Assembly (NCBI GenBank): GCA_019695185.1
Contig: JAIBAN010000001.1
Location: 62,001 to 126,000, forward strand
DNA length: 64,000 nucleotides
From: Blastocatellia bacterium
GTDB taxonomy: Bacteria; Acidobacteriota; Blastocatellia; Chloracidobacteriales; Chloracidobacteriaceae
Direction of reading: 5' to 3'
In this document: piece by piece, positions 2,064-63,967 of the stretch
Numbering within the stretch: position 1 is the stretch's first letter
How the letters are laid out: the number at the start of each line of letters is the position of its first letter
Program-made: the position numbers and the translations under genes
Notes under the pieces: model-generated
What the model saw: only the letters and a program-made list of their open reading frames with translations
Database searches by the model: none
Told to the model about the DNA's origin: nothing

Positions 2064-2594
2064 ATGAAAAAAGTTCCCCAGGAAGTTTTGAAATTGCCGG
2101 TGACCGGGCTCAATCTGGATGCCAAAACCTTGGGCGGTCAAATTGCGAAAACCGGTACCTTGTTGGTTTTCCTCCGGCATTTTGGCTGACTGTTTTGTCG
2201 TGAGTGCGTAAAGGATTTACGCCGCGTCGCAACGGAAACTGCCAATTATCCGCCGGTTCTTTTTTTCTTCATGGCCGATGTGGAAGCCGGAAAACCGTTC
2301 TTTGAGTCGCTCTGGCCTGAAGCCCAGGCCGTTTCCGACCCGGAACGGCACTTTTATGATGCTTTTGGCCGCAAACATGGAACCATCGGCCAGTTTTTGA
2401 GTCCGGGAGCCCTCACCGCAGGAGTCCGGGCTTTATTCAAAGGCAATTTCATCGGGGCCCCGGTGGGTGACCCGCTCGTTATGCCGGGTTTTTTCCTGGT
2501 ACGGAAAGACGGTCAGGTGGTGTGGGAATATCTTTCCGCCCATACGGGTGACCATCCCGATTTTGCCAAAATACCATTTCAGGGAAAGGACTGA
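2064..2594 (+). CDS. Peroxiredoxin-like (AhpC/TSA type) probable selenoprotein, UGA read as Sec42
   Basis: Read through the in-frame TGA at 2187-2189, this is a 176-residue thioredoxin-fold protein. The ATG at 2064 has an excellent Shine-Dalgarno (ACAGGAGGTAAA). The segment before the TGA is LLVFLRHFG and the segment after it is LFCRECVKDLRR, which together match the redox site of PRXL2/AhpC-TSA-like proteins (usually R-x-G-C-x-x-C-R-E), with TGA at the first cysteine. That gives a U-x-x-C motif. Homologous sequence continues in frame to 2594 with no other stop. A SECIS-like hairpin follows at 2206-2222. The alternative, a recent nonsense mutation, is less likely because the rest of the frame is intact and the stop falls exactly on the redox residue. 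Standard callers would report only the fragment from 2271. The true stop lies inside a heptad repeat. Confidence 0.75.
2206..2222 (+). promoter_or_regulatory. SECIS-like hairpin for selenocysteine insertion
   Basis: A perfect 7-bp stem (GCGTAAA / TTTACGC) is closed by the loop GGA. The loop begins 24 nt after the UGA, so 23 nt lie between. As I recall them, published bacterial SECIS criteria ask for a small apical loop with a G in its first two positions, about 16-37 nt after the UGA; this element fits. It lies within the coding sequence. No selA, selB or tRNA-Sec is visible in the window. Confidence 0.65.
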
Positions 2595-2712
2595 GGACTG
2601 AGGACTGAGGACTGAGTTAATAATGAGAACCCTGGAAAACTCAGAGGGTTTCATTTTGTAAAAACTTTGGGAGGTCATTAACTCAGTCCCCAGTCCTCAG
2701 TCCTCAGTCCTC
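2588..2712. repeat. Heptad inverted repeat, unit GGACTGA
   Basis: The left arm has four tandem GGACTGA units plus GTTAA (2588-2620). The right arm (2678-2710) is its reverse complement with one mismatch, giving a potential 33-bp stem around a 57-nt loop. The selenoprotein stop codon lies within the first unit. The right arm ends 9 nt before the next start codon. The hairpin fills the whole gap. Confidence 0.92.
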
Positions 2713-2719
2713 AAAAAAT

Positions 2720-3694
2720 ATGCTTGAACGTCTGCAAAAAATTATCGCCAATGCCGGTCTCACTTCGCGCCGCAAGGCTGAGGAACTCATCCAGGAAGGA
2801 TTGGTGACCGTCAACGGACAAATCGTCACCGAACTGGGGGCCAAAGCTGACCCGGACCATGACCATATCAAGGTCAATGGCCGGTTGCTCAACACACTGC
2901 TGGAACGGAAAGAAAAAACCTATTACCTGCTCAACAAACCGAAAGGCTATCTTTCAAGCCTGTCGGACCCGGAAAAACGTCCGTTGGTGACCGCTTTTCT
3001 GCCGTCCCATGCACCCCGCGTGTACCCGGTCGGACGGCTGGATTTCAATACCGAAGGATTGCTTATTCTGACCAATGACGGTGAATTGAGTAATCTGATT
3101 ACCAAAGCCGGGAAGCATTGCCCCAAGGTCTATCATGTCAAGGTCAAAGGGTCGCCCTCACCTGCTCAGGTTGAGCGGTTGATGCGCGGGCTGAAAGTCG
3201 AAGACCAGTATTTCCGCATGTCGAGTGTGGAACATCTGGAAGGTGGGGAAGGGTCCAATACCTGGTATGAAGTCACGCTGCACGAAGGCAAAAACAACCA
3301 AATCCGCAAAATGTTTGATGAAATCGGGCATTCGGTTTTGAAGCTGCGGCGGGTTGCCATCGGCCATCTGACGGACCATCGGCTGCCTTTGGGGGAAATC
3401 CGGGAACTGAGCGAAGCCGAAGTCCAGAAATTCTTCCGGGTGGCCAAGGCGGTTGAAAAAGCCAAAGCCGCTCAGGCCCGTGGCGAGGCTCCTGCCAGCC
3501 AGGCAGTCAAACCCTTGACGCCCGGTGCCAAACAGAAACTCGGCAAGCCCAAACCAATTGGCCGCGCCAAAACCGAACAGCAAAAACGGCTGACGAAAAC
3601 CATCGGCAAGGATGTGAACACCAGTTTGGGGCGGAAACTGACGCGGGGCGGCAAATCAACCCGAACCCAACCCAGAGGAAAAAAACTGGGATAA
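2720..3694 (+). CDS. RsuA/RluB-family rRNA pseudouridine synthase with basic tail
   Basis: A 324-residue protein that isomerises a specific uridine in ribosomal RNA to pseudouridine. An N-terminal S4 RNA-binding domain (residues about 2-60, LTSRRKAEELIQEG) is followed by the catalytic domain with the signature GRLDFNTEGLLIL; Asp108 is the expected catalytic residue. NNQIRKMFDEIGH and LKLRRVAIG are the usual downstream motifs. The last 80 or so residues form a Lys/Arg/Pro-rich low-complexity tail, likely RNA-binding, which longer family members also carry. RluB is the best guess for the target type, but RsuA-like specificity cannot be excluded. There is no Shine-Dalgarno: the second arm of a heptad repeat and an A6 tract lead straight into the ATG. 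Confidence 0.9.
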   Translation: MLERLQKIIANAGLTSRRKAEELIQEGLVTVNGQIVTELGAKADPDHDHIKVNGRLLNTLLERKEKTYYLLNKPKGYLSSLSDPEKRPLVTAFLPSHAPRVYPVGRLDFNTEGLLILTNDGELSNLITKAGKHCPKVYHVKVKGSPSPAQVERLMRGLKVEDQYFRMSSVEHLEGGEGSNTWYEVTLHEGKNNQIRKMFDEIGHSVLKLRRVAIGHLTDHRLPLGEIRELSEAEVQKFFRVAKAVEKAKAAQARGEAPASQAVKPLTPGAKQKLGKPKPIGRAKTEQQKRLTKTIGKDVNTSLGRKLTRGGKSTRTQPRGKKLG

Positions 3695-3767
3695 CCCTCG
3701 ACCTTGAGCCTTGAGTTTTCAGCCTTGTGATTTTTCGATTTGTTTCTCACAGCAAACAACAATTCAT

Positions 3768-5042: not shown

Positions 5043-5043
5043 A

Positions 5044-5190
5044 GAGACTTGGGAGGCTTGGGAGGCAAAGGGGAGTTTAAAGGATTTTCGGGAAAAAAGA
5101 ACAAAGAACAGGTTTTTTACTCGGTCTTTTGACATCCGGCTTCCGCTTTTTTAGACTTCCCAAACTTCTCAAGACTCCCAAGACTTCAAG
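5044..5190. repeat. Degenerate nonad inverted repeat, CTTGGGAGG type
   Basis: Directly after the tyrS stop lie two degenerate 9-nt units (ACTTGGGAGGCTTGGGAGG). At about 5152-5190, diverged reverse-complement units (ACTTCCCAA, ACTTCTCAAG, ACTCCCAAGACTTC) close the element around a loop of about 80 nt. It is the same family as the perfect array at 12444-12621 but more decayed. It ends about 20 nt before the next gene. Confidence 0.7.
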
Positions 5191-5211
5191 ATTTTCAGGA
5201 CCGGTTTTTTT

Positions 5212-5688
5212 ATGCGGATTCAGAGTAAAACACGCAGCCGGGTAGCTTCCGAGCCGACACTTTCGACTCCTGACATACTTAAAATCATCCAGACTGAAAT
5301 GGCGCGCAAACGTCCATTCCGGTTACGGTTGTATGGGACAAGCATGCATCCGACGATTCGCAACGGTTCATGGATTACCATCGAACCCGTAGGACCGGAA
5401 GACATGCGGGCCGGTGACATCCTGCTGTTGGCCTCCAGCAGTCAGACCGCGATGGTTCATCGCCTGCAACGAGTCGAACGCTCCGAAACCCGCACGTTGC
5501 TCTACACGCAGGCCGACGCCGCCGAGAAACTTGACATTCCGGTACCGCTCTCCCATCTGGTGGGCCGGGTGAGCCAGATTGAACATGCCGGAATGCAGGT
5601 TGACCTGACAACCTGGTGGCAACGGGTTCGCTCACTTGTCATTGGCTGGAAATCCCGTTGGCGTCTGTGGCGCGCCAAACACCAATAA
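5212..5688 (+). CDS. S24/S26-like serine peptidase without a membrane anchor
   Basis: A 158-residue protein with the signal peptidase I box-B motif GTSMHPTI (Ser44 as predicted nucleophile). At the position of the second box it has MVHRL, with His83 where classical type I signal peptidases have Lys, resembling the ER/SipW-type Ser-His arrangement. No N-terminal membrane helix is visible, unlike true signal peptidases. The C-terminus (about residues 134-158) is rich in Trp and Arg and may be an amphipathic membrane-binding helix. Such short S24/S26 proteins often occur near peptide maturation genes, but none is adjacent here. Enzymatic activity is inferred from motifs only. Confidence 0.72.
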   Translation: MRIQSKTRSRVASEPTLSTPDILKIIQTEMARKRPFRLRLYGTSMHPTIRNGSWITIEPVGPEDMRAGDILLLASSSQTAMVHRLQRVERSETRTLLYTQADAAEKLDIPVPLSHLVGRVSQIEHAGMQVDLTTWWQRVRSLVIGWKSRWRLWRAKHQ

Positions 5689-5693
5689 ATCAT

Positions 5694-5752
5694 TTGCGAT
5701 TTGCGATTGACCATTTGCCACCTGCCATTCACCAATGGCAGGTGGCAAATGG
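5694..5752. terminator. Hairpin with heptad units between convergent genes
   Basis: A perfect 18-bp inverted repeat (5711-5728 with 5735-5752; arm CCATTTGCCACCTGCCAT) with a 6-nt loop lies between two convergent genes, where it could act as a bidirectional terminator. The DNA leading into it is in register as 7-nt units (ATTTGCG, ATTTGCG, ATTGACC, ATTTGCC, ACCTGCC), so it is a short-loop member of the heptad hairpin class. Confidence 0.75.
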
Positions 5753-5753
5753 T

Positions 5754-10254: not shown

Positions 10255-10260
10255 ACAACA

Positions 10261-10385
10261 GGACTGAGGACTGAGGACTGAGGGCCGAGTAATTTTGGTT
10301 GCAATTGATACATTTCAGTCAACTGCATGGAACAACTCAGTCCTCAGTCCTCAGTCCTCAGTCCTCAGTCCTCAGCCCTCAGTCC
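10261..10385. repeat. Heptad inverted repeat, unit GGACTGA, unequal arms
   Basis: The left arm has three GGACTGA units plus a diverged GGGCCGAGT (10261-10290), the right arm about seven CTCAGTC units (10335-10385), with a loop of about 44 nt between. The right arm is much longer, as expected if unit number expands or shrinks by slippage. In two frames the right arm is open and yields a false N-terminal SVLSPQS extension on the next gene. Confidence 0.9.
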
Positions 10386-12443: not shown

Positions 12444-12621
12444 AGTCTTGGGAGTCTTGGGAGTCTTGGGAGTTGTGGGAGTCAAGGAAATTTGTCACCT
12501 TGTCAACCTTGCCGGTTTTTTTGACTCCCAAGACTCCCAAGACTCCCAAGACTCCCAAGACTCCCAAGACTCCCAAGACTCCCAAGACTCCCAAGACTCT
12601 CAAGACTCTCAAGACTCCCAA
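12444..12621. repeat. Nonad inverted repeat, unit CTTGGGAGT / GACTCCCAA
   Basis: Starting right after the heparinase stop, the left arm has about four 9-nt units (12444-12486). The right arm (12523-12621) has eleven GACTCCCAA units, two with a C-to-T change, separated by a loop of about 36 nt. Since 9 is a multiple of 3, each frame reads a 3-residue repeat (TPK, DSQ, LPR). It is the clearest example of unequal arm expansion in the window. Confidence 0.92.
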
Positions 12622-12733
12622 GACTTCTTCACGGTCCGAAATTGACAGCCTTCCTCCAGCACAGTAACATTCGCCGACTTCTTTATTTCATCCCACCTTA
12701 CAGCTTTCTCAAGAGTTACGAGGTTTTTTATTT

Positions 12734-13750: not shown

Positions 13751-15304
13751 TTGGGGACAAATGGCGGTGTGTGTGTGAAATCTGTCTCGGAACAGGCTCA
13801 ACAATTGGTTGTCTTTATGCGGCGGCAGGGATGGTGCCTGGGGGGAATCTTCCTGGCCACTGTTGGCTTGGCGGCCTGGGCCTGGGCAGTGCGGGTTTTA
13901 TATGGGATTCAGGTGCCATTGGTAGCCGAAATCAGACAAATCCGGCTGAGTGCGGCTGCCGTCGGGGTTGCCCTTGAACAGGTGATTATCCCGATTGTCT
14001 TGTTTTACGGGTTTTGCCGCACTGGTTTCTTTCATCGGCTCATCAGCGAGGAACTGGCCCCGGCTGAAAAATACCGGTTGGTGCTGGTGTTGGTACTGGG
14101 GCAATGCCTGACCTTGGGGACGGCCCTGGGAGTCGAAGTTTGGGTGCGCCAGCCGCTTGTCTCGTTTGGTTTTTTGATTGTTTTGATTGGTGGTTTTCTG
14201 GGTGGCTGGTCAGTTGGCTTGTGGCTGGGAGGGGTGACCTGCGCTGTCAGGGTCGGGGTTCACTGGTATCTTTTCCCTGAAACCGGTGTCATGGCTCATA
14301 CGCTGGGAAATTTGTGGGGGCTGGCTGCCATCTGGGCCGGATTGGTGGCTGGGCTGACTGCCCGACTCCTTGGTATTTGGCGCTTTGAAGCAGGGGTGGC
14401 GTTTTTCTTCGGGTTGGTCATGGATGGCGTCGGGGGGCTGGCAATGGCGATTGCCGCACCCCAACCAAACCTGTTTACCCATAATCTGATGGCCAACATG
14501 CTGGTTTCAGGCCTTGCCCTGGCGATGGTGTCATTACTGGTGCGAAGTGTTGAGGCCGAAGTCTCACAACGGAAAGCAGAAGCCGCAGAGCTTTCCCGCA
14601 CCCAATCGGAATTGCGGGCCTTGCGGGCACAAATCAATCCGCACTTTTTTTTCAACGCGCTCAATACCATCCGGTACTTTGTCCGGATTGACCCGGAAGC
14701 TGCCCGTGCCTTGCTGCTCAGTCTTTCCGAGGTTTTTCAACGGGCGTTGAGAGCGGGGGATTTTGTTCCGCTCCGCAGTGAAATCAGTTATGTCGAGGCG
14801 TATCTCTCGATTGAAAAAGCCCGATTGGACAAGCGTCTGCACATTATCTGGTCGTTGCTCGGCACCGAAGGAAAAATTCAGGATACCCCGTTGCTTGACA
14901 ACACGGTGCCAACCTTGATTTTGCAGCCGATTGTGGAAAACGCCATCATTCACGGGATTGCCAAGAAGGCCGAAGGGGGAACGCTTCGGATTGCCATTGA
15001 CCAGGCGGACGGCAACCTGTTGTTGCAGGTGGCAGATGATGGAATCGGCATTGAACCCAATCGGTTGGAAGAAATCCTGCATTCCGGGCAAGGGAAGGGG
15101 ACCTCAATTGGGCTCAAAAACGTGGACCGCCGCTTGCGGGTCATGTACGGTGAACATTACAAACTGGTGATTAAATCACAACCTGGACATGGAACCTGGG
15201 TTCAGATCAAAATCCCGCTCGAAATCCGCCAACCGGGAAAACTCGAATTTCGAGGCCGGTTCGATTCATTGCCCAAATATCGGGTGGACCATTCAGTAAA
15301 ATAG
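13751..15304 (+). CDS. LytS-type sensor histidine kinase
   Basis: About 517 residues: five to six hydrophobic segments in the first 270 residues (5TM LytS-like sensor), a coiled linker, then a His_kinase domain with INPHFFFNALNTI (phospho-His at about residue 298) and an HATPase with VENAIIHGI, DDGIGI and GTSIGLKNVDRRL. It presumably phosphorylates the LytTR regulator encoded 120 nt downstream. The start is uncertain: TTG at 13751, or GTG at 13769 or 13775, all in frame. There is no clear Shine-Dalgarno. No PAS or GAF domain is seen. Confidence 0.9.
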   Translation: MGTNGGVCVKSVSEQAQQLVVFMRRQGWCLGGIFLATVGLAAWAWAVRVLYGIQVPLVAEIRQIRLSAAAVGVALEQVIIPIVLFYGFCRTGFFHRLISEELAPAEKYRLVLVLVLGQCLTLGTALGVEVWVRQPLVSFGFLIVLIGGFLGGWSVGLWLGGVTCAVRVGVHWYLFPETGVMAHTLGNLWGLAAIWAGLVAGLTARLLGIWRFEAGVAFFFGLVMDGVGGLAMAIAAPQPNLFTHNLMANMLVSGLALAMVSLLVRSVEAEVSQRKAEAAELSRTQSELRALRAQINPHFFFNALNTIRYFVRIDPEAARALLLSLSEVFQRALRAGDFVPLRSEISYVEAYLSIEKARLDKRLHIIWSLLGTEGKIQDTPLLDNTVPTLILQPIVENAIIHGIAKKAEGGTLRIAIDQADGNLLLQVADDGIGIEPNRLEEILHSGQGKGTSIGLKNVDRRLRVMYGEHYKLVIKSQPGHGTWVQIKIPLEIRQPGKLEFRGRFDSLPKYRVDHSVK

Positions 15305-15416
15305 GGTTCAGGGTTCAGGGTTCAGGGTTTTCGAATACCGAAATTTTGAGGATCCGCTTCAAGTCTCAAAACTCAGAACCCAAGAAAAGCTCCTGAACCC
15401 TGAACCCTGAATCCTG
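15304..15416. repeat. Heptad inverted repeat, unit GGGTTCA / TGAACCC
   Basis: Three GGGTTCA units and a partial one (15304-15330) face degenerate TGAACCC units (15392-15416) across a loop of about 60 nt. It lies between the kinase stop and the regulator start. The first loop bases (TTTTCGAATACC) recur, inverted, in the same-family hairpin at 49815-49927. Confidence 0.88.
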
Positions 15417-16316: not shown

Positions 16317-16337
16317 ATTCCAAGTTTTCAATCTCTT

Positions 16338-16354
16338 CCTCAGTCCTCAGTCCT
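16338..16354. repeat. Single heptad arm, unit GGACTGA on the minus strand
   Basis: Two and a half CTCAGTC units lie just beyond the stop of the minus-strand xdhC gene. Read on the minus strand they are GGACTGA units following a stop codon, the same polarity as the complete elements. No second arm was seen. Confidence 0.6.
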
Positions 16355-17483: not shown

Positions 17484-17643
17484 GAGTCTTGGGAGTCTTG
17501 GGGGGCTTGGGAGTCTTGGGAGTCAAAGACAAGTGACAAGTGACAAGTGACAAGTAGCAAGAAAAATCCTGTTACTGTTTACCTGTCACTGTTTACTTCT
17601 TCAGACTCCCAAGACTCCCAAGACCCCCAAGACTCTCAAGACT
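17484..17643. repeat. Nested inverted repeat: nonad outer arms, heptad inner arms
   Basis: Outer arms are 9-nt units (GAGTCTTGG type at 17484-17526; GACTCCCAA type at 17604-17643). Inside them sit four perfect 7-nt GACAAGT units (17528-17555) and four diverged, complementary-looking units (CTGTTAC, TGTTTAC, CTGTCAC, TGTTTAC; 17569-17596). Two unit lengths are thus nested in one element in the gap between the Mo hydroxylase and xdhC. Confidence 0.85.
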
Positions 17644-23815: not shown

Positions 23816-23933
23816 ATCGGGTATCGGGTATCGGGTATCGGGTTTTTTCAGTTGACAGTTCAAAGTTAAAATCCAACTCGAAACATCAGGTTTTATACAT
23901 TTGAATACCCGAAACCCGAAACCCGAAACCCTG
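23816..23933. repeat. Heptad inverted repeat, unit ATCGGGT / ACCCGAA
   Basis: Four perfect ATCGGGT units (23816-23843) face three ACCCGAA units (23907-23927) across a loop of about 63 nt. The right arm's complement is TTCGGGT, so each unit pairs at six of seven positions with a fixed mismatch. The two arms therefore carry different variants of one unit. It separates the two VWFA paralogues and abuts both genes. Confidence 0.88.
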
Positions 23934-25117: not shown

Positions 25118-25226
25118 AATTGAGAATTGAGAATTGAGAATTGAGAATTAAAACCTCAAAACCAGGTTTATCTTGATTTCATCTGGCTTACGGTGTCAAA
25201 AAATTCTCAATTCTCAATTCTCAATT
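25118..25226. repeat. Heptad inverted repeat, unit AATTGAG
   Basis: Four AATTGAG units (25118-25145) and three ATTCTCA units (25203-25226) enclose a loop of about 50 nt. The right arm ends at the stop of the radical SAM gene (minus strand). The left arm lies in the leader of the VWFA gene. The rest of the 240-nt gap (24993-25117) shows no other structure. Confidence 0.9.
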
Positions 25227-25231
25227 CATTT

Positions 25232-26414: not shown

Positions 26415-26526
26415 GAGTCCAGGGAGTCTGGGGAGTCCAGAAATCTAGGGACCAAAACTGATTGAGAGTTGGGAATGTATTTCTGAGTCCTCAGTCCTCA
26501 GTCCTTGTTTCAGACTCTCAAGACTA
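26415..26526. repeat. Mixed repeat element, nonad and GGACTGA heptad units
   Basis: Three 9-nt units (GAGTCCAGG, GAGTCTGGG, GAGTCCAGA) lie at 26415-26441. After about 40 nt come two to three CTCAGTC heptads (26483-26506), then a nonad-type end AGACTCTCAAGACT (26511-26526). The outer parts belong to one family and the inner right arm to another. It fills the gap between the DUF167 and radical SAM genes. Confidence 0.75.
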
Positions 26527-28260: not shown

Positions 28261-28378
28261 GAGTCTGGGAGTTTGAGAAAGGACTGAGGACTGAGGACTG
28301 AGAAAAGGAGAAATCAAGGGAATCAGAAAAGTCATATCAAACTCAGTCCTCAGTCCTCAGTCCTCAGTCCTTTTTATT
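28261..28378. repeat. Heptad inverted repeat, unit GGACTGA, with nonad fragment
   Basis: Three GGACTGA units (28281-28301) and about four CTCAGTC units (28341-28373) enclose a 38-nt loop. GAGTCTGGGAGTTTGAG (28261-28277), next to the symporter start, is a fragment of the nonad family. The right arm reaches the stop of the next minus-strand gene. Confidence 0.88.
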
Positions 28379-30079: not shown

Positions 30080-30205
30080 AAATTGAGAATTGAGAATTGA
30101 GAATTGAGAGCAGGTTGAACAGGAAATGGGAGTTGCTGGTTGATGGGTCAAGCCGTACCAAATTTTCTCAATTCTCAATTCTCAATTCTCAATTCTCAAT
30201 TCTCG
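30080..30205. repeat. Heptad inverted repeat, unit AATTGAG
   Basis: Four AATTGAG units (30081-30108) face about five ATTCTCA units (30164-30205) across a loop of about 52 nt. It occupies the gap between the metalloprotease stop and the start of the downstream secreted protein. Confidence 0.9.
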
Positions 30206-33365: not shown

Positions 33366-34067
33366 ATTAGGAGAACCCCCTTCGGCTCAAAAAGTTTATA
33401 TGTCAACGGATGGTGTCGGTGCGGCGTGACACCCGCTGGGCGACCGGCGACAGTGGATCGTCTGGTTATTGGTTGTTTTGCTGACAGGTGTCGCGTGCCA
33501 CAAAGCGTGCGTGTGCTGAACAAAGGTGTTTGTGAGAGAACGATTCCGGAGCCACGAGCTACTTTTTCCACTTTAGCAAAAACATGCCCTCACTGTCAGC
33601 CTGTGACGGCAAGGTAACAGTCCTGGGAGTCCTGGGAGTCCTGGGAGTCCTGGGAGTTAATCAACATTCTCAATTCTCAATTCTCAATTCTCAATTCTCA
33701 ATTCTCAATTCTCAATTCAACAGGTCCCCTACCTGTTTTGGTAGTTGTTGCCGGTTTTGCGGTTTTGATATTGTACGTGCCACGTGCTTTCCATCTTTAT
33801 CTTCAAAAAAAGTCGGTTACTTCCTGAGTTTCAACAGTATTGAGGCAGGGTTCACTTTGGGATTGGAAGGAAAATCCATGAACGCCGCTTTTTGAGGTGG
33901 TGGTCTGTCATTGTCTTTGCAGTGCATCCTTTCCTTTCTGGTTTGCGGAGAGTTGCCCTTGGACTCACTGCCTGGGCCATCGTTTTCCAATCCCAATGAA
34001 GCTGCCAAAACCGTTGTGACCTTCAGGCGCTGACTTCCATTTTCACCTTTGGAGTTCACACAACGTT
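33366..34067. other. Divergent 700-nt intergenic region
   Basis: This gap separates the divergent metalloprotease and DUF4132 genes and must hold both promoters. Apart from the repeat array at 33618-33720, I see no gene. Short ORFs on both strands are either translated repeat or lack ribosome binding sites and family resemblance. No operator or riboswitch was recognised. Confidence 0.6.
33618..33720. repeat. Chimeric tandem array: four nonads then seven heptads
   Basis: Four perfect AGTCCTGGG units (33618-33653) are followed after 11 nt by seven perfect ATTCTCA units and a partial one (33665-33720). The left part has the polarity of a nonad first arm, the right part that of an AATTGAG second arm, so the arms cannot pair with each other. 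It looks like a fusion of two half elements. Confidence 0.9.
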
Positions 34068-37751: not shown

Positions 37752-37753
37752 CA

Positions 37754-37880
37754 GGACTGAGGACTGAGGACTGAGGACTGAGTTTCTTGTTCGTTTATCA
37801 CAATAGCTCATTTGATTCCCGAAGTCTTATGGTAGTTTAGCACTCAGTCCTTAGTCCTCAGTCCTCAGTCCTCAGTCCTG
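37754..37880. repeat. Heptad inverted repeat, unit GGACTGA
   Basis: Four GGACTGA units (37754-37781) and about five CTCAGTC-type units (37842-37879, one with a T substitution) enclose a loop of about 60 nt. The first arm starts two bases after the DUF4132 stop. The second arm is followed by AAAAAATATG, the same decamer that follows the element at 2588-2712. Confidence 0.92.
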
Positions 37881-42202: not shown

Positions 42203-42226
42203 CTCAGTCCTCAGTCCTCAGTCCTC
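42203..42226. repeat. Single heptad arm, CTCAGTC units
   Basis: Three CTCAGTC units and a partial one lie 90 nt after the methyltransferase stop. No GGACTGA arm is found between that stop and this array. It has second-arm polarity relative to the plus-strand genes. Confidence 0.65.
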
Positions 42227-45710: not shown

Positions 45711-45847
45711 AATTGAGAATTGAGAATTGAGAGTTGAGAATTGAGAATTAAAATCCAGTTCAGACATGTTGCCAAAAAAAGAATTTTGAAGAAACCCTCT
45801 TTTTGAATTCTCAATTCTCAATTCTCAATTCTCAATTCTCAATTCAG
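45711..45847. repeat. Heptad inverted repeat, unit AATTGAG
   Basis: Five units (four AATTGAG, one AGTTGAG; 45711-45745) face five ATTCTCA units (45807-45841) over a loop of about 60 nt. The array runs into the glgA stop codon on one side and ends within ten bases of the sucD start on the other. Confidence 0.92.
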
Positions 45848-47268: not shown

Positions 47269-47405
47269 AGTTGAGAATTGAGAATTGAGAATTGAGAATT
47301 GAGAATTGAGAAGAAGCAGTGGTATCGCCAGATTTTGTGAAATTTGGGTTATCAAGCACCCAGATAAAAATCAATTCTCAATTCTCAATTCTCAATTCTC
47401 AATTG
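47269..47405. repeat. Heptad inverted repeat, unit AATTGAG, seven units
   Basis: Seven units (47269-47317) face four ATTCTCA units (47374-47401) across a loop of about 56 nt. It begins at the glgA start codon and ends four bases before the rho stop. It is the same family as the next element at 45711-45847, but the loop sequence is different. Confidence 0.92.
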
Positions 47406-49710: not shown

Positions 49711-49814
49711 GCTGGTTACTGATTCTTATTGTGAAATATACCGACGGCGGGAACATTTGTGCAGATACGGCTGGCACTCTACTCTGACTGAACGGATTTT
49801 GCAAGAAACTTTCT

Positions 49815-49927
49815 TCAGGGTTCAGGGTTCAGGGTTCAGGGTTCAGGGTTCAGGGAGCTTTGAGCTTTGATTCAAAATCCCCAATCTTTGGTATTCGAAA
49901 ACCCTGAACCCTGAACCCTAAACCCTA
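49815..49927. repeat. Heptad inverted repeat, unit CAGGGTT / AACCCTG
   Basis: About six CAGGGTT units (49815-49855) face about three and a half AACCCTG units (49901-49927) over a loop of about 45 nt. The right arm overlaps the lon stop codon. The loop end next to the right arm, read on the minus strand, is TTTTCGAATACC, shared with the element at 15304-15416. Confidence 0.92.
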
Positions 49928-53655: not shown

Positions 53656-53675
53656 GACACGCTCCAAGTGGGTTT

Positions 53676-53762
53676 TTTGAGTTTTGAATTTTGAATTTTG
53701 AATTTTGAATGAGTGGTTCTCATCGCCACGTTCACTCAAAACGCAAAATTCAAAATGCAAAA
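53676..53762. repeat. Heptad inverted repeat, unit TTTTGAA
   Basis: Four perfect TTTTGAA units (53682-53709) face diverged units (CAAAACG, CAAAATT, CAAAATG, CAAAACT type) at 53738-53762 over a 28-nt loop. It sits between clpP and clpX, extends almost from stop to start, and is A/T-rich unlike its surroundings. Confidence 0.82.
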
Positions 53763-55831: not shown

Positions 55832-55957
55832 TGGGTTTGCCTCTGTGTACAAATGAATTCAAAGAGCACAAAACTTGTGCTTCAGGTAAAACGGCCATTA
55901 TAGGCATAGCCGCCCGGACTCTGCAAATCAGGGACGCCAACCGGAAGCAGAAAACCA

Positions 55958-56095
55958 GGACTGAGGACTGAGGACTGAGGACTGAGGCTAAAGAAACTCA
56001 TTGGTGTTCCAAATCAACGTGCCGGATTTGAATACCCGGAACCGGATTTTTAGCCATTCGGTCAGAGAAAAAACACTTAGTCCTCAGTCCTGAAT
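55958..56095. repeat. Heptad inverted repeat, unit GGACTGA, long loop
   Basis: Four GGACTGA units (55958-55985) face two CTCAGTC-type units (56076-56093) across about 90 nt. The right arm ends at the stop of the macro-domain gene. It separates that gene from tig on the minus strand. Confidence 0.88.
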
Positions 56096-57543: not shown

Positions 57544-57632
57544 ACCACAGAGACACAGAGGACACAGAGAGGGCACAGAGTTTTTCCTGGTGTTTCTCTG
57601 TGTAGCCTTCGTGGCCTCTGTGTCTCTGTGGT
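57544..57632. repeat. 18-bp inverted repeat with CACAGAG-rich arms
   Basis: ACCACAGAGACACAGAGG (57544-57561) and its perfect reverse complement (57615-57632) flank a 53-nt loop that starts with further CACAGAG-like units. It lies between convergent genes. The spacing of CACAGAG is irregular (8-11 nt), so it differs from the strict 7-nt arrays though the architecture is the same. Confidence 0.85.
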
Positions 57633-58606: not shown

Positions 58607-58628
58607 TTTGGTGTATTGAGAGTTTTGA

Positions 58629-58801: not shown

Positions 58802-59635
58802 ATGGCTCGAAATCTTTTATCCAGGGATTTTTACGGCGGTACGCTGCCCAGTCTGGCAGTCACTGGTCTGACGCTCTCTGAATCCTGCTATCCGCCGGCA
58901 TTAAAGATGCCGCGCCATCAACATGAGCCGGCTTATTTCAGCCTTGTTTTGCAGGGAAGTTATTCGGAAAAACTGGGAATAAAGGGAAGCACCAGGGAAG
59001 GCCGGCCCCATGCAGCCCTTTTCCATCCGCAGGGTGAATCCCATGCGGTTATTTTTCATGCGGCCCCGGTGCATATCCTCCGGGTGGAGTTGGGACCGCA
59101 GTGGTTGGACCGCATGTCACTCTTTGACCGGATTCCGGATGCACCGCTTTCGCAAGGCAATGACCATGTGATGTCTCTGGCGCGCAGACTTTACCGGGAG
59201 TTTCAGCACCGTGACCGGTGGTCCACCTTTGCCATTGAAGGGCTGACCCTGGAACTCATGGCCGAGTTGGGGCGTGCCGCAACCGCCAGCCCCAAAAACC
59301 GGAAACCGTCCTCCTGGATTCAGACTGTCCGCGAGCAATTGGAAGCCGTCCACGCCGAATTCCCAACCCTGGAGGAACTGGCCACTCAGGCGGGCGTGCA
59401 TCCCGTTCATCTCTCGCGGGAGTTTCGCAAACAGTTTGGGGTGACCCCCAGCGAATTTCTCCGCCGCCGCCGCATTGAACAAGCCAGCGAGCAGCTTGCC
59501 CACAGTGACCGTTCACTTTGTGAAATTGCTCTCGAAGCCGGTTTCTATGACCAGAGCCATTTTACCAACGCCTTCAAGCGCCAGATGGGAATGACGCCGA
59601 CAGCCTATCGGGCTTTGTTTTATTTTCACCAATAG
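58802..59635 (+). CDS. AraC family transcriptional regulator
   Basis: A 277-residue regulator. The N-terminal cupin-like half (about 30-120: PRHQHEPAYFSLVLQGSY) would sense an effector, and the C-terminal AraC domain contains two helix-turn-helix units (LEELATQAGVHPVHLSREF; LCEIALEAGFYDQSHFTNAFKRQMGMTPTAYR). The effector is unknown. It is divergent from the TrxR-like gene, which might be its target. The ATG 58802 has no strong Shine-Dalgarno. Confidence 0.93.
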   Translation: MARNLLSRDFYGGTLPSLAVTGLTLSESCYPPALKMPRHQHEPAYFSLVLQGSYSEKLGIKGSTREGRPHAALFHPQGESHAVIFHAAPVHILRVELGPQWLDRMSLFDRIPDAPLSQGNDHVMSLARRLYREFQHRDRWSTFAIEGLTLELMAELGRAATASPKNRKPSSWIQTVREQLEAVHAEFPTLEELATQAGVHPVHLSREFRKQFGVTPSEFLRRRRIEQASEQLAHSDRSLCEIALEAGFYDQSHFTNAFKRQMGMTPTAYRALFYFHQ

Positions 59636-59662
59636 GGCTGAGGACTGAAGACTGCGGACTGA
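59635..59662. repeat. Single heptad arm, GGACTGA type
   Basis: Four 7-nt units in register (GGGCTGA, GGACTGA, AGACTGC, GGACTGA) start at the last base of the AraC stop codon. No complementary arm is present before the protease start at 59843. It is a half element with first-arm polarity. Confidence 0.7.
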
Positions 59663-59842
59663 TCCGATGTTCATTGCCGGTGGTGAGCCGCTCGGTTGTC
59701 AGGTCTGGCAGAAATTCCTCCCTCACATGGTTAATTGCATCCAAGCCGGTTGTCATTTTCCAAGACAGCAGGCCGGGGCCTCTCTACACTTGGTTCCAAC
59801 TCCATTCAAAAATCTGACTGTGTGACGGGAAGAAGATTCTCT

Positions 59843-62800
59843 ATGCGCATTGTATGGCTGTTGGTTTTGGTGTTCTGTGCCAGTTCCCTCGTTTCCGCCC
59901 AAACTTCATCAAGGGCGCTTTTCGGACGGCTGGCAGTGAATGAAACCCGGATTGTTTTTACCTATGCCGGTGACGTATGGACGGTGGACCGTCAGGGTGG
60001 AGAGGCCCGCCGTCTGACGACTCATCCGGCGGAGGATGGGGCTCCGGTAATTTCGCCGGATGGAAAGCAATTGGCCTATGCGAGTCAGGCCGAAGGTTCG
60101 TGGGATGTCTATCTCATGCCGATTGAAGGTGGAACCACCCGGCGTTTGACCTTTCACCCACGGAATGAGTATCCGCGCGGCTGGACGCCCGACGGCAAGT
60201 CGCTGCTGCTCTTAACCACTGAAACCGGTTCTCCTCAATTGAGCCTGCTGGATGTGAATGCCACCTTGCCCACCCAGCTTCCTTTGGTGGAGGGCTGGAC
60301 CGGTTCTTTCGCGCCGGATGGCCAGCGGCTGGCGGTTGCTCCCACCTCCAGCATTGGAGATTGGCGTTATTATCGGGGCGGAAACAATGGGCGCATCTGG
60401 CTGACGGACCGTTCGACCTGGAACATCACTCCACTTGCGCAAGGTACATTTAATGACGAGTTTCCCATGTGGGTTGGTAACACGGTTTATTTCATTTCGG
60501 ACCGGACCGGGGTGTACAACCTGTTTGCCTATGACCTGGGAACCCGGAAAACCAGACAACTGACAACCTTTGAAACCTATGGCATCCGTTGGGCCAGCGC
60601 CGGAGGCGAAGCCGTGGCGTTTGTCCGCGATGGCCGGATTTACCTGTATGAAATTGCCACCGGGAAAACCCGGACAGTGGACATCCGGCTGAATCCGGAA
60701 AGGCCGGAGCTCAAACCCCGCACTGCTTCTGCACTGCGCAGCCTGGAATCCATCAGTCCTGGCATGAACGGGGAAACCTGCCTGATTGGCGCTCGCGGGG
60801 AAGTGCTGGCCCTGACCACGGCGACCGGAGCGGCCCGGAATTTGACCCAGACACCGGGGGTGGCGGAACGCTATCCGGTACTTTCTCCGGACGGAAAACA
60901 GGTGGCCTTCTTTTCGGATGAAAGTGGTGAATATGAGCTTCAGGTACGGGAACTGGAGAGCGGCCAACTTTTCAAACGCATTCCGGTTGAAGCGAAGCCT
61001 TCATTTTATCGGGAATTGACCTGGGCTCCCGATGGGAAGCGGTTGGCTTTTACCGACAAACGGCTGGCGCTGTGGGTGGCCGAGGTGGCGTCGGGCAAAA
61101 CCATGCAGGTGGACCGTTCGACCTATTCCTATCAGGAGGAATGGTTTCCCCGCTGGTCACCGGATGGCCGGTGGCTGACCTTTTCAAAGCATTTGCGGAA
61201 TCGGGTGCGGACGGTTTTTATCTGGGAGGCAGCATCCGGCCAGACACGTCAAATCACCGACGGTGTGACCCACACCGAACAACCCTGCTTTGATGCCAAT
61301 GGAAAGTATCTCTATTTTGTTTCCAGCCTGAATGCCGGAACCAGTGAATTTGGCTGGGGTGTTCTCAACGGTGTGCTGGCCCGCCCGTTGATAACTAGGC
61401 AGTTGCAGGTGGCGATGCTTTCCGCCAGCGACCTAGCCCCTTTTTTACCCGATGGAAAGCCCAATCCGGCAGCCAAACCCGCAGAATCCGTTCCGGCTGT
61501 AACGATTGATTTTGCCGGATTAAACCGGCGGGTACTGGACCTGCCAACTCCGGCCCGCGATTACGCCGGGCTGCAGGCGGGTCTGCCGGGCACGGTTCTG
61601 GTTCTGGTCAACGAGTGGCCGCCCTTGCCAGCTCCGGGGGCAAATCCCAGCCAGATGCTCTATCGGCATGATTTTTCCCAACCGGGAAAATTGGACAAAC
61701 TGGCTGAAAATGTCGGTGCCTTGGAAGTCACCGGAGACGGTCGGCGGGTTTTGCTGGCACGAGGTGGAGTCTGGTCCTTGCTTCCGACAGCTCCGGCAGA
61801 AAAAACCGAAGAGCGAAAACTTGATTTGGGCAAAGTGGAAATCGCAGTTGACCCCGCCGCTGAATGGAAACAGATGTATCACGAAGCGTGGCGGATTATG
61901 CGGGACTGGTTTTATGACCCGGCCCATCACGGTCAGAATCTGGCTGATTTGGAGGCCCATTATGCCACCTATCTGCCCAATGTCACCCGCCGGACTGACC
62001 TCAACGGTTTGTTGGGGTTGGCACTCGGTCATATTTCGGTGAGCCATTTTGTGGTTGGGGGTGGAGATATGCCCTCCGGACCGCCACCGGCAAGGATTGG
62101 ACTTCTGGGGGCCGACTATGAGATTGCCGCCGGACGGTATCGCTTCAAACGGATTTTCCGAAGCAGCACGTATAGCGACCCGTTGGGAACGAACGCCGCA
62201 CCGCTTGACCGTCCGGGTGTGCAGGTCAAAGAAGGGGAATTTCTGCTCAAGGTCGAGGGGCAGGATGTTACCGCCGATAAACCCATCTGGCCTTATTTTC
62301 TTTTGAAAAATCCGGGTCCGCTGACAATTACCGTTGGTCCGGAACCAACTGGGGCCAATGCCCGCACCCTGACAGTCTATCCAATTCCGAATGAAACCCA
62401 GCTTCGGGTGGCGGATTGGGCGGAAGCCAATCGGAGACGGGTTGAGGAAGCTTCACAGGGGAAGCTTGGCTATGTGTACGTAGCTGATTATGGGGCGGAA
62501 ACCCTGAAGCTGATGCGGGCTTTGAGCGGTTACAGCGACCGGGCCGGAATCATTATTGACCAACGATACAATGGCGGAGGCATCACGCCAGATTATCTGA
62601 TTGAATGGCTGCGGCGGAAACCAATCTATCAGTACACGTTTCGGGAAGGGGACGACATCGCCACTCCGGTCAATCCCGGTCCGCCTGTTTCGGTGCTTCT
62701 GGTCAACCACCAGAATTATTCTGCTGCCGAGACGTTTGCCTTTATGTACAAACTGACCAAAATCGGGCCGCTGGTGGGAAAGCGAACCGGCGGTGGTGGT

Positions 62801-63064
62801 ATTGGTCCCTATGTGTTTACTCCCCGGTTGCTGGATGGAGGCCGGGTGCAGCTTCCCAATCGGGCGGCTTACAATCCTGACGGAACTTCCTGGGGAATTG
62901 AAAACATTGGGGTTGCTCCGGATGTTGAGGTGGAAATACTCCCCCAGGATGTGCTGGCCGGGCGTGACCCACAATTGGAGCAGGCCCTCCGGATGGCCCT
63001 TGAGGCTGCAAAAAAACAGCCTCCTGCTGTTGTGAAGAAGCCGAAATATCCGGTTCACAAGTAA
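59843..63064 (+). CDS. Tricorn-like S41 family peptidase
   Basis: A 1073-residue exported protease. The start at 59843 (MRIVWLLVLVFCASSLVSAQ) gives a signal peptide. Residues about 30-640 are WD40-like/PD40 beta-propeller blades (ISPDGKQLAYAS, LTWAPDGKRLAFTDKR, PRWSPDGRWLTFS). A PDZ-like segment with FLLKVEGQDVTADKP precedes the C-terminal S41 serine protease with NYSAAETFAF (Ser960 as nucleophile) and KRTGGGGIGPYVFTPRLLDGG. Tricorn homologues degrade oligopeptides; the exported form probably acts in the periplasm. The gene is flanked by repeat arms. Confidence 0.93.
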   Translation: MRIVWLLVLVFCASSLVSAQTSSRALFGRLAVNETRIVFTYAGDVWTVDRQGGEARRLTTHPAEDGAPVISPDGKQLAYASQAEGSWDVYLMPIEGGTTRRLTFHPRNEYPRGWTPDGKSLLLLTTETGSPQLSLLDVNATLPTQLPLVEGWTGSFAPDGQRLAVAPTSSIGDWRYYRGGNNGRIWLTDRSTWNITPLAQGTFNDEFPMWVGNTVYFISDRTGVYNLFAYDLGTRKTRQLTTFETYGIRWASAGGEAVAFVRDGRIYLYEIATGKTRTVDIRLNPERPELKPRTASALRSLESISPGMNGETCLIGARGEVLALTTATGAARNLTQTPGVAERYPVLSPDGKQVAFFSDESGEYELQVRELESGQLFKRIPVEAKPSFYRELTWAPDGKRLAFTDKRLALWVAEVASGKTMQVDRSTYSYQEEWFPRWSPDGRWLTFSKHLRNRVRTVFIWEAASGQTRQITDGVTHTEQPCFDANGKYLYFVSSLNAGTSEFGWGVLNGVLARPLITRQLQVAMLSASDLAPFLPDGKPNPAAKPAESVPAVTIDFAGLNRRVLDLPTPARDYAGLQAGLPGTVLVLVNEWPPLPAPGANPSQMLYRHDFSQPGKLDKLAENVGALEVTGDGRRVLLARGGVWSLLPTAPAEKTEERKLDLGKVEIAVDPAAEWKQMYHEAWRIMRDWFYDPAHHGQNLADLEAHYATYLPNVTRRTDLNGLLGLALGHISVSHFVVGGGDMPSGPPPARIGLLGADYEIAAGRYRFKRIFRSSTYSDPLGTNAAPLDRPGVQVKEGEFLLKVEGQDVTADKPIWPYFLLKNPGPLTITVGPEPTGANARTLTVYPIPNETQLRVADWAEANRRRVEEASQGKLGYVYVADYGAETLKLMRALSGYSDRAGIIIDQRYNGGGITPDYLIEWLRRKPIYQYTFREGDDIATPVNPGPPVSVLLVNHQNYSAAETFAFMYKLTKIGPLVGKRTGGGGIGPYVFTPRLLDGGRVQLPNRAAYNPDGTSWGIENIGVAPDVEVEILPQDVLAGRDPQLEQALRMALEAAKKQPPAVVKKPKYPVHK

Positions 63065-63220
63065 GGGCTGAGGGTCCAGGGTTCAGGGGCCAGGGTTCAG
63101 GGTTCAGGGGCCAGGGTTCAGGGTTCTCGATGACCAGGAAATTTGAAGCTCTGAATGGGTTTAATTGTCAATTGTCCATACAAAGACCCTGAACCCTGAA
63201 CCCTGAACCCTGGACCCTGA
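63065..63220. repeat. Heptad inverted repeat, mixed GGGTTCA / GGGGCCA units
   Basis: Nine units in register (63065-63127): GGGCTGA, GGGTCCA, then GGGTTCA and GGGGCCA alternating irregularly. The right arm (63186-63220) has five ACCCTGA-type units. The loop is about 58 nt. The first unit matches that of the half element at 59635, suggesting exchange between families. Convergent genes flank it. Confidence 0.9.
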
Positions 63221-63221
63221 T

Positions 63222-63815
63222 TTAGTAGTGTTTCCGGTTTTTGAGGTCTGTCAAAACCAGCCGCGCCGCTGCTTTCAAGGTATCAAAGACACCAATCCCC
63301 TGATTTGCCACTGCTTCTATCACGGGTTCGTTTTTCAGGACGAGTTCCCGCTTCATTTCATCCACCGAAAGGATGTTACGGCCATCCCGTTTGTTGAGTT
63401 GGAGCACGTAAGGGAGCGTCCGAAAATTCAGATTATACTCGGCAAGATGTTCCAGCATGTCATTGACCATGAGGATATTGGCGTCCATTCTTTCGAAATG
63501 GCTGTCGGCGACAAAGATGATTCCATCCAAGCCCCGTACAATCAGCTTCCGGCTGGCTTTGTAGAAAATCTGTCCTGGTACCGTGTACAGATGGAAACGG
63601 GTTTTGAATCCCCGGATTTCACCCAGTTGCAACGGCATAAAGTCAAAAAACAGAGTGCGCTCCGTCTCGGTATCCAGTTTGACCAGTTTGCCTTTTGCGC
63701 TTGGGTCTGACTGTTTGTAAATATGCTCCACGTTGGAAGTTTTCCCGCCTAGCCCCGGCCCGTAGTAAACGATTTTGCAACTGATTTCTTTGGTTGCCAG
63801 ATTGATTGTCACCAT
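63222..63815 (-). CDS. mglA: MglA-type small GTPase
   Basis: A 197-residue Ras-like GTPase of the MglA family, which sets cell polarity and motility in Myxococcus and occurs as a single gene in many other bacteria. The start at 63815 has a perfect AAAGGAGGT eight bases upstream; a longer frame exists but lacks one. G1 is YYGPGLGGKTS, G3 lies around YTVPGQ, and G4 is LNKRD (NKxD type). No mglB (roadblock) gene is seen next to it, though the window ends 185 nt further on. Confidence 0.93.
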   Translation of the reverse strand: MVTINLATKEISCKIVYYGPGLGGKTSNVEHIYKQSDPSAKGKLVKLDTETERTLFFDFMPLQLGEIRGFKTRFHLYTVPGQIFYKASRKLIVRGLDGIIFVADSHFERMDANILMVNDMLEHLAEYNLNFRTLPYVLQLNKRDGRNILSVDEMKRELVLKNEPVIEAVANQGIGVFDTLKAAARLVLTDLKNRKHY

Positions 63816-63929
63816 AGATTGCGACCTCCTTTTTGTTTCAGAGTGAGAAAGTCGCCTCAAATCTCGAAAAAAGATTTTCCAGGAAAGAAATCTTTTGAGT
63901 GAATTGCTTCACTTTGGCTTCGTGGTATT

Positions 63930-63967
63930 CTGAACCCTGAACCCTGAACCCTGAACCCTGCACCCTG
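63930..63967. repeat. Single heptad arm, unit CTGAACC
   Basis: Four perfect CTGAACC units and one variant (CTGCACC) lie upstream of mglA on its far side and just before a possible plus-strand ATG at 63970. No first arm is seen. It has second-arm polarity for a plus-strand gene. Confidence 0.8.

What the first reader, a model, noticed from the sequence alone, without database searches (positions are those of the whole stretch)
2588..63967. Genome-style class of intergenic hairpins with 7-nt or 9-nt tandem-repeat arms
Seen: about 18 intergenic gaps hold an inverted repeat whose two arms are tandem arrays of short units, with loops of about 30-90 nt; about seven more gaps hold one arm. Full elements: 2588, 5044, 5694, 10261, 12444, 15304, 17484, 23816, 25118, 28261, 30080, 37754, 45711, 47269, 49815, 53676, 55958, 63065. 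At least seven units are used (GGACTGA, AATTGAG, GGGTTCA, CTTGGGAGT, ATCGGGT, TTTTGAA, ATTTGCC), so architecture and unit length are conserved while sequence is not. Known: heptanucleotide tandem repeats (STRR) occur in cyanobacteria, and REP/BIME hairpins in enterobacteria; neither is an inverted pair of heptad arrays with many unit types, to my knowledge. Inference: a generating mechanism acting on short words (template switching plus slippage), or a family of non-autonomous elements, with effects on mRNA ends between cistrons.
Basis: partly seen in the sequence, partly recalled or inferred. Interest (0 to 1): 0.88.

Follow-up and report, generated by a model that had tools for sequence, protein, structure and literature searches.

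The report
Inward-pointing repeat hairpins after stop codons
This uncultured bacterium carries, by extrapolation, about nine hundred intergenic hairpins whose two arms are short words, mostly of 7 or 9 letters, repeated head to tail, nearly always pointing inward and mostly starting right after a gene's stop codon; the general kind was seen before in Xanthomonas and Geobacter, but the shared direction across many different words, and arms shared without their loops, are unexplained.

Summary
Window gaps hold 33 period-7 and 7 period-9 arms and 14 strict inverted pairs; dinucleotide-shuffled gaps gave means of 0.18, 0.04 and 0. A 755-kb sample of the genome, whose TyrRS is closest to an uncultured Blastocatellia record, holds 82 distinct pairs, about 109 per Mb. 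(2) In codirectional gaps elements start a median 4 nt after the upstream stop. (3) Two kinds exist. CAGGGTT elements share a conserved core (41 places including itself) and look like a dispersed miniature element. GGACTGA and GAGAATT elements have pure, shared arms around unrelated loops. Closest known: inverted GGGAATC arrays of Xanthomonas (PMC4692102) and paired tandem-repeat sites of Geobacter (PMC2700814), so the architecture is not new. My best reading: REPIN/MITE-like stem-loops tolerated at gene 3' ends, whose arms grow by slippage and are re-copied between elements. Neither mobility of the window's two main types nor any RNA function is shown.

The parts
2587..2713 (.). GGACTGA element: left arm 2587-2616, right arm 2682-2713
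   Evidence: RNA fold -73.5 kcal/mol, z -9.9
5044..5187 (.). Degenerate nonamer element (AGACTTGGG-like) between TyrRS and the next gene; the orthologous gap of G001 holds a nonamer element too
5691..5752 (.). ATTTGCG x2.4 followed by a short-loop palindrome CCATTTGCCACCTGCCATT/AATGGCAGGTGGCAAATGG
10260..10385 (.). GGACTGA element: arms 10260-10283 and 10336-10385
   Evidence: fold -69.0, z -10.0
12444..12625 (.). Nonamer element AGTCTTGGG: arms 12444-12483 and 12523-12625; related copy at C72:54670-54836 (81%)
   Evidence: fold of 12444-12593 -87.5, z -10.6
15303..15416 (.). GGGTTCA element: arms 15303-15329 and 15392-15416
17484..17643 (.). Nonamer element with nested GACAAGT array 17528-17555; dispersed copies at C7:106236, C7:47361, C7:108931
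23816..23931 (.). ATCGGGT element: arms 23816-23843 and 23907-23931
25118..25227 (.). AATTGAG element: arms 25118-25149 and 25202-25227
   Evidence: fold -42.2, z -9.7
28280..28371 (.). GGACTGA element: arms 28280-28302 and 28342-28371
30081..30204 (.). AATTGAG element: arms 30081-30109 and 30165-30204
33619..33718 (.). Hybrid: left arm AGTCCTGGG (33619-33657), right arm ATTCTCA (33666-33718); polarity kept without a strong hairpin
   Evidence: fold -24.1, z -1.7
37753..37879 (.). GGACTGA element: arms 37753-37782 and 37843-37879; loop found once in the 8.3-Mb genome
   Evidence: fold -65.4, z -9.5
45711..45845 (.). AATTGAG element: arms 45711-45749 and 45806-45845
47271..47404 (.). TTGAGAA element: arms 47271-47312 and 47371-47404
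   Evidence: fold of 47269-47404 -61.6, z -10.3
49814..49926 (.). TTCAGGG element: arms 49814-49855 and 49900-49926
53675..53762 (.). Degenerate TTTTGAA element
55957..56090 (.). GGACTGA left arm (55957-55987) with a short, imperfect right arm reaching about 56090
63071..63220 (.). AGGGTTC element: arms 63071-63126 and 63186-63220; its core matches 41 places in the genome, itself included
   Evidence: fold of 63071-63215 -76.9, z -5.9
16337..16354 (.). Single arm TCCTCAG
26486..26505 (.). Single arm AGTCCTC
42203..42226 (.). Single arm CTCAGTC
59634..59662 (.). Single imperfect arm AGGACTG
63930..63967 (.). Single arm CTGAACC

Best explanation
These are a class of stem-loop repeats that settle just after stop codons, comparable to REPINs and MITEs. 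Each is two inverted arrays with the G-richer strand reading inward. Shown: a nearly fixed polarity; stop-codon proximity; conserved cores at dispersed places in both orientations for the CAGGGTT and nested-nonamer types; arm lengths that vary independently; arms of GGACTGA and GAGAATT shared across the genome around unrelated loops; different units in the same orthologous gap of related genera in three cases. Inferred: the elements first spread as small non-autonomous mobile hairpins. Replication slippage then grows and shrinks each arm by whole units. A few units take over because arms are re-copied from one element to another by template switching or ectopic conversion, which keeps the polarity and leaves the old loop. 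They persist at gene 3' ends because that site is tolerated and the transcript then carries a long hairpin, which probably affects RNA processing or stability.
For: Core of the window 63071 element at 41 places (itself included) on both strands, while the loop of the window 37753 element occurs once. Loop-to-loop alignment scores of 20 or more: CAGGGTT 20 of 152 pairs; GGACTGA 0 of 251; GAGAATT 0 of 119; shuffled loops 0 (elements under 3 kb apart left out). Phase-locked, pure arms: outer end AGGACTG in 35 of 50 GGACTGA arms and AATTGAG in 20 of 38 GAGAATT arms; the window just outside matches the unit at background level, 0.28 and 0.24. Left/right arm lengths uncorrelated: Spearman 0.29, 0.05, 0.05, p 0.16 or more. 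Neighbouring arms of different units read G then C in 22 cases of equal and 13 of unequal unit length, C then G in 0, in this genome (some come from nested elements or variant units). Stop-to-element quartiles 1, 4, 10 nt in 57 codirectional pairs. Gaps of 90 nt or more with a pair: convergent 17 of 47, codirectional 53 of 222, divergent 5 of 59. Whole-element copies in neighbouring gaps, in either orientation: C5 598/1075, C2 41318/42633, C11 5484/6951. A G003 family has defined ends and a 3-bp target duplication TNA, read by eye, in five of seven listed copies; the other two lack one end. At 9 orthologous gaps (10 comparisons): both occupied 4, three of them with different units; one occupied 4; neither 2. 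Left out as ambiguous or one-sided: the gaps at C13 807, C72 267153 and after C72 270358.
Against: No target-site duplication beyond the range of 100 shuffled-partner controls around the 83 listed pairs, for lengths 3, 4, 5, 7, 8 and 9; some settings lie above the control mean (TNA 4 vs 1.5; 3 nt with a 6-nt end 3 vs 1.1; 4 nt 7 vs 3.2) but within its maximum. No transposase was tied to any family: of four Y1-transposase loci read, two hold arrays, no more than background density gives. For GGACTGA and GAGAATT a shared core is missing, so their spread as units is inferred from the other types. Nothing here explains why polarity is the same in different units; ordinary hairpins of the same genome show only 61 G-left to 34 C-left. 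The neighbour rule is not absolute: in G003 C then G occurs in 1 of 30 equal-length and 3 of 28 unequal-length cases. In Xanthomonas the repeat sites were reported as more stable than controls (PMC4692102, passages), which does not suit rapid turnover. Unit changes at orthologous gaps rest on three cases.
Confidence: 0.4

Rival explanations
1. Arms are made in place. Ordinary hairpins after stop codons acquire short repeats by slippage, the second arm is copied from the first by intra-hairpin template switching, and no transposition is involved.
For: Unrelated loops for GGACTGA and GAGAATT; pairing that extends beyond the heptads in some elements, e.g. C5 1045 (by eye); no target duplications beyond control range; array purity.
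Against: The same exact units recur at very many sites: 2035 overlapping GGACTGA-dimer matches. CAGGGTT cores are homologous. Arm lengths are uncorrelated. Ordinary hairpins of the genome have only weak polarity.
Confidence: 0.22
2. Selected binding arrays: each unit is the site of a DNA- or RNA-binding protein, or a G-quadruplex, and selection keeps unit sequence and place.
For: Uniform units with unrelated loops; stop-codon proximity; Geobacter pairs were proposed as IHF/HU sites (passages); oligonucleotides of the Xanthomonas repeats form quadruplexes in vitro (PMC4692102, abstract and passages).
Against: Quadruplexes cannot be general: 0 of 38 GAGAATT arms and 0 of 10 G003 CAGTAGT arms hold four GG runs. 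Units are patchy among relatives and differ at three orthologous gaps. No neighbour-function pattern was tested.
Confidence: 0.17
3. Transcription terminators or RNase III sites: the hairpins were selected as 3' ends of transcripts.
For: Folds of -42 to -88 kcal/mol for seven window elements; median 4 nt after the stop and few pairs in divergent gaps; in Xanthomonas transcripts start or stop more often at quadruplex-forming repeats than at controls (PMC4692102, section 15 read).
Against: A T tract after the 3' arm in only 7 of 58 codirectional pairs (one counted twice) against 10% of random intergenic decamers. The one hybrid folded has no strong hairpin yet keeps polarity. Unit identity is not needed for a terminator.
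Confidence: 0.12
4. A repeat-writing enzyme of telomerase type extends 3' DNA ends with a templated 7-9-nt G-rich unit; each arm is one such extension.
For: Inward G-rich polarity in 134 of 137 pairs of six genomes, and in 29 of 31 unit spellings of own and G003; phase-locked array ends, independent arm lengths; hybrids. DRT10 reverse transcriptases make tandem 9-nt repeats in bacteria (PMC12632851, abstract and passages).
Against: It does not explain the loop or the stop-codon anchoring. No candidate enzyme or template was found: five RVT_1 matches, four over the cut-off, read by eye as retron-like and RT-Cas1-like in part, not tested. DRT10 is protein-primed; the passages I saw describe no writing into the chromosome.
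Confidence: 0.06
5. Assembly or binning artefact.
For: Draft genome in 222 contigs.
Against: The same architecture with other units in five other genomes; copies vary and sit between genes.
Confidence: 0.01

Closest known systems
Inverted GGGAATC heptad arrays of Xanthomonas (Rehm et al. 2015, PMC4692102; sections 10 and 15 and passages including the abstract read)
   Same: Tandem heptads, mostly intergenic, often two arrays convergent and close (70 and 75 cases); [quoted passage not shown] few between divergent genes; [quoted passage not shown]
   Different: One G-rich unit studied, able to form quadruplexes, at genomic places reported as more stable than controls. Here there are many units of 7-9 nt, several with no GG run, at about 109 pairs per Mb, with nested and hybrid elements and a dispersed conserved core in one type.
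Paired tandem-repeat sites of Geobacter metallireducens (2009, PMC2700814; passages read)
   Same: Pairs on opposite strands at variable distance; several classes in one genome; tandem units of about 7-9 nt (GTTGCTYN, TCTCCGTS[Y], MTYCTGA).
   Different: 24, 21 and 8 pairs, read there as global-regulator sites; polarity, stop-codon placement and loop uniqueness are not described in the passages I saw.
REPINs and REP elements with RAYT transposases (PMC3116915 abstract and passages; PMC3733652 passages)
   Same: Inverted pairs with a spacer less conserved than the ends, extragenic, hairpin-forming; REPs close to genes can supply the stop codon.
   Different: REP units are single 20-40-bp palindromes, not tandem arrays; no linked RAYT was found here.
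Cyanobacterial STRR and TAACTGA repeats (PMC4679880, abstract and sections 3 and 10 read; the name STRR is recalled)
   Same: Heptanucleotide tandem arrays, intergenic, patchy across phyla.
   Different: Mostly direct arrays: 169 direct sets and one indirect in BOGUAY, most just before start codons.
MITEs with a TNA target (seen here in relative G003)
   Same: Short non-coding element with inverted heptad arrays, dispersed in both orientations.
   Different: The window genome's elements show no target duplication beyond control range and two main types share no core.

Membership tests
Inverted heptad-array class of Xanthomonas (Rehm 2015) | Two tandem heptad arrays on opposite strands close together, G-rich strands convergent | tested here: met
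   79 of 82 distinct pairs with left arm G-rich; 14 strict pairs in the window
Inverted heptad-array class of Xanthomonas (Rehm 2015) | Close to the stop on the coding strand, under-represented between divergent genes | tested here: met
   Median 4 nt; divergent gaps 5 of 59 vs convergent 17 of 47, Fisher p 0.0006
Inverted heptad-array class of Xanthomonas (Rehm 2015) | Arms can form G-quadruplexes | tested here: not met
   0 of 38 GAGAATT arms have four GG runs; GGACTGA 34 of 50 with GG and 0 with GGG; CAGGGTT 19 of 36 with GGG
MITE | Target-site duplication | tested here: not met
   Within the range of shuffled partners for lengths 3, 4, 5, 7, 8, 9 in 83 listed pairs; seen only in a G003 family, by eye
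MITE | Homologous copies at dispersed sites | tested here: inconclusive
   Met for CAGGGTT (41 places) and the nested nonamer type; not met for GGACTGA and GAGAATT, except neighbouring GGACTGA copies
REPIN (REP doublet) | Inverted pair with a spacer less conserved than the ends | tested here: met
   Met for GGACTGA and GAGAATT; in CAGGGTT the core is conserved and the arms are decayed outward
REPIN (REP doublet) | Linked RAYT (Y1 transposase) | tested here: not met
   11 Y1_Tnp matches in the genome; of four loci read, two hold arrays about 1.5 kb from the gene, no more than background; the other matches were not read
Intrinsic terminator | Stem followed by a T tract | tested here: not met
   7 of 58 vs 10% of random intergenic decamers; the scan allows loops of 3-8 only and cannot see these elements
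STRR | Heptanucleotide tandem arrays, intergenic | tested here: met
   but some types here are nonamers
Telomerase-like or DRT10 product | Cognate reverse transcriptase and RNA template | tested here: inconclusive
   Five RVT_1 matches in the genome, not classified; no template searched

The most novel reading that the evidence does not exclude
The arms are products of a chromosome-writing activity: a templated repeat-adding enzyme (telomerase- or DRT10-like) or a dedicated template-switching pathway adds a genome-specific 7-9-nt G-rich unit to 3' ends facing each other near stop codons. This would make polarity, phase-locked ends, independent arm lengths, hybrids and unrelated loops all one mechanism.
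Probability: 0.07. Interest if true: 0.93.

Novelty: new variant of a known kind. Interest (0 to 1): 0.57.

Why it matters
[quoted passage not shown] This genome offers on the order of 900 elements (extrapolated) in several unit families, with a polarity rule that holds across units and genera and fits the placement reported for Xanthomonas. That turns a curiosity into a testable problem: what writes or copies the arms, and why the G-rich strand points inward after stop codons. Arms lie in 152 of 353 gaps of 60 nt or more in the sample, so repeats shape much of this genome's intergenic DNA.

Tried and rejected
Target-site duplications of 3, 4, 5, 7, 8 and 9 nt around window-genome pairs: none beyond the control range. 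Polarity inherited from ordinary terminators: ordinary hairpins are only 61 to 34 G-left here, 71 to 39 in G003, and 83 to 104 in 80 loci found with TyrRS, nearly all of other phyla. Intrinsic terminators: no T-tract excess. G-quadruplexes as the general cause: rejected by GAGAATT and CAGTAGT. Rfam and tRNA matches in the window: none. Phage carriage: no exact match of one GGACTGA hairpin pattern in viral contigs. Recent paralogous regions as empty sites: none informative in the sample. Y1 transposase linkage: not seen in four loci. An idea that the heptads are repeated TNA target plus element end was dropped because the nonamers and several heptads lack TNA; that check was by eye and no call counts it.

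Limits: gene calls are my own ORF and codon-score model, so start positions are rough. The window genome has 754.7 kb sampled of 8.33 Mb, G003 789 kb. The G001 stretches were chosen because one search showed nonamer matches there (plus the TyrRS contig), so G001 density and unit make-up are biased. My first pair list counted one right arm twice here (83, now 82) and two arms in G003 (36, now 34); one search recounts polarity, gaps and distances, while searches used the older lists. The lists of 39 relatives include the window's own genome. The 31 units are spellings, some of them one base apart, not independent families.
Full report
CHECKING THE OBSERVATION. The window is C72:62001-126000 of an 8.33-Mb draft genome in 222 contigs; its TyrRS is closest (63%) to an uncultured Blastocatellia record (very near records may be left out there). 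In 37 window gaps there are 33 period-7 arms, 7 period-9 arms and 14 pairs; 50 dinucleotide shuffles gave means of 0.18, 0.04 and 0. In 359 gaps of the larger sample the counts were 238, 31 and 79 against 0.75, 1.0 and 0. The GGACTGA dimer matches 2035 times in the genome (overlapping matches counted) and its reversed control never.

SAMPLE. I took 754.7 kb of the genome in stretches and called genes with an ORF and codon-usage model of my own. The first list had 83 strict pairs and 163 unpaired arms; one right arm had been used twice, so there are 82 distinct pairs, about 109 per Mb, or some 900 in the genome by extrapolation. Any arm is present in 63 of 141 and 42 of 96 codirectional gaps (plus and minus), 29 of 54 convergent and 18 of 62 divergent gaps of 60 nt or more.

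POLARITY. In 79 of 82 pairs the left arm has more G than C, so that on both strands the G-richer array reads 5' to 3' toward the loop; the three exceptions are two ATTTGCC-type pairs and one GCTTTCA pair. In the same-family genome G003, which uses 7-, 8- and 9-nt units, it is 34 of 34; in G001 11 of 11, G014 3 of 3, G025 2 of 2, G033 5 of 5, and G016 and G026 gave no pair. Counted by unit spelling over own and G003, 29 of 31 obey. Unpaired arms obey too: 22 G-rich to 3 C-rich near the left border of a gap, 20 C-rich to 0 G-rich (one neutral) near the right border; 67 were in neither position and 50 were skipped. Neighbouring arms of different units read G then C in 22 (equal length) and 13 (unequal length) cases and never C then G; the rest were G-G 1 and 6, C-C 2 and 4, and four with a neutral unit. 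Some of these come from nested elements or variant spellings, so they are not all true hybrids. In G003 the same count gave G then C 17 and 15, C then G 1 and 3. Ordinary hairpins in gaps without arrays do not share this (61 to 34 here; 83 to 104 in 80 TyrRS loci).

PLACE. In 57 codirectional pairs the element begins 1, 4 and 10 nt (quartiles) after the upstream stop, 48 of 57 within 30 nt; the distance to the next start is 10, 26 and 221 nt. Where 100-900 nt of gap remain, 14 of 18 elements lie within 36 nt of the stop and three within 24 nt of the start. In 11 of 57 the stop lies inside the array. Pairs occur in 17 of 47 convergent, 53 of 222 codirectional and 5 of 59 divergent gaps of 90 nt or more (Fisher p 0.0006 and 0.010 against divergent).

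TWO KINDS OF ELEMENT. CAGGGTT elements share a core: the loop of the window element at 63071 matches 41 places, itself included, on both strands, and 10 of 18 sampled loops match others. The nested nonamer element at 17484 has three more copies. By contrast the loop of the GGACTGA element at 37753 matches only itself. Among GGACTGA loops 0 of 251 non-neighbour comparisons, and among GAGAATT loops 0 of 119, reach a score that 20 of 152 CAGGGTT comparisons reach. Five of 25 GGACTGA loops do match, but only an element about 0.5-1.5 kb away, in either orientation. Yet GGACTGA and GAGAATT arms look the freshest: they tend to start at a fixed phase (35 of 50; 20 of 38) and stop abruptly, with flanking identity to the unit at background, while CAGGGTT and nonamer arrays have decayed units outside (0.48). 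So these arms seem to have spread or been renewed without their loops. Arm lengths in a pair are uncorrelated.

RELATIVES. Units are patchy. Among 38 relatives the GGACTGA dimer is found in five, with at most 22 matches; the nonamer dimer in one, G001 (82; 368 in the window's genome); the GAGAATT trimer in five, most in G001 (26) and G030 (39). At nine orthologous gaps (ten comparisons) both genomes are occupied by exact arrays in four, with different units in three of these; one only in four; neither in two. The clearest is C72:268834-268941, GAGAATT arms here and nonamer arms in G001, with loops that look unrelated by eye. A further unit, CAGTAGT, has six listed matches of one loop in G003. 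A young G003 family with GGGTTCA arrays lies inside defined outer ends and a TNA target duplication in five of seven copies, read by eye; the other two lack one end. In two of the five the target is a gene's stop codon, which I read off the listed coordinates.

HOW IT MOST LIKELY WORKS. The shared cores and the G003 family suggest that such stem-loops can spread as small non-autonomous elements. Uncorrelated arm lengths and whole-unit steps fit slippage. Shared pure arms around unrelated loops, hybrids, nested arrays and unit changes at one gap suggest that arms are overwritten from other elements; this step is inference. The seven paired elements folded as RNA give -42 to -88 kcal/mol, z -5.9 to -10.6, and the hybrid z -1.7, so a role in RNA processing or stability is plausible but untested. 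Termination by a T tract is not indicated, and quadruplexes cannot be general.

COMPARISON WITH WHAT IS KNOWN. My paper searches found the closest cases. Rehm et al. 2015 (PMC4692102; sections 10 and 15 and passages read) describe 70 and 75 convergent heptad pairs in two Xanthomonas genomes, close to stops on the coding strand, few between divergent genes, at places reported as more stable than controls. The Geobacter metallireducens paper (PMC2700814; passages) lists paired tandem-repeat sites on opposite strands. MacGregor 2015 (PMC4679880; abstract and two sections) treats TAACTGA arrays and cites Mrazek for the excess of heptads. REPINs (PMC3116915; abstract and passages) have ends more conserved than spacers. 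I found no paper on such elements in Blastocatellia, in a library that lacks most subscription journals. Hence 'new variant of a known kind': the pairing, place and polarity have a precedent; the many units of 7-9 nt in one genome at this density, the cross-unit polarity, arms without shared loops and unit change at one gap have none that I saw in the searches and passages named.

Noticed in passing
window 57546-57580; C72:51815 and C72:226546 (own stretches): Another intergenic repeat family, CACAGAGGA-like, and hairpins such as TTTTCACCGCAGAGGCGCAGAGGT/ACCTCTGCGCCTCTGCGGTGAAAA; it resembles intergenic repeats I recall from other environmental genomes, not checked.
   Followed up: no
G000:C195 (L144, L145): An RT gene directly followed by a gene that looks like cas1, possibly a CRISPR-associated RT; naming is by eye, no family search was run on the second gene.
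   Followed up: no
G000:C62 (L143): A retron-like RT gene (named by eye) whose upstream gap carries CAGGGTT, AATTCTC and CTGAACT arrays; arrays are so common that this may be chance.
   Followed up: no
L177:16797-17555 (G003): AGTGGTT arrays with a short loop segment repeated several times in tandem within one gap (by eye).
   Followed up: no
L037:19792-19922 and L052:15741-15913: Inverted heptad arrays in two Bacteroidota loci (TACGATT/ATCGTAT; CAATAGG/ATTGCCT), so the architecture appears in another phylum.
   Followed up: partly
C2:41283-42753, C5:544-1185, C11:5454-7076 (own stretches): Neighbouring gaps that carry copies of one element (about 80-88% identity), direct or inverted, suggesting short-range copying.
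   Followed up: partly
window 1622-1739: A 21-nt repeat, 5.6 copies, inside an open reading frame.
   Followed up: no
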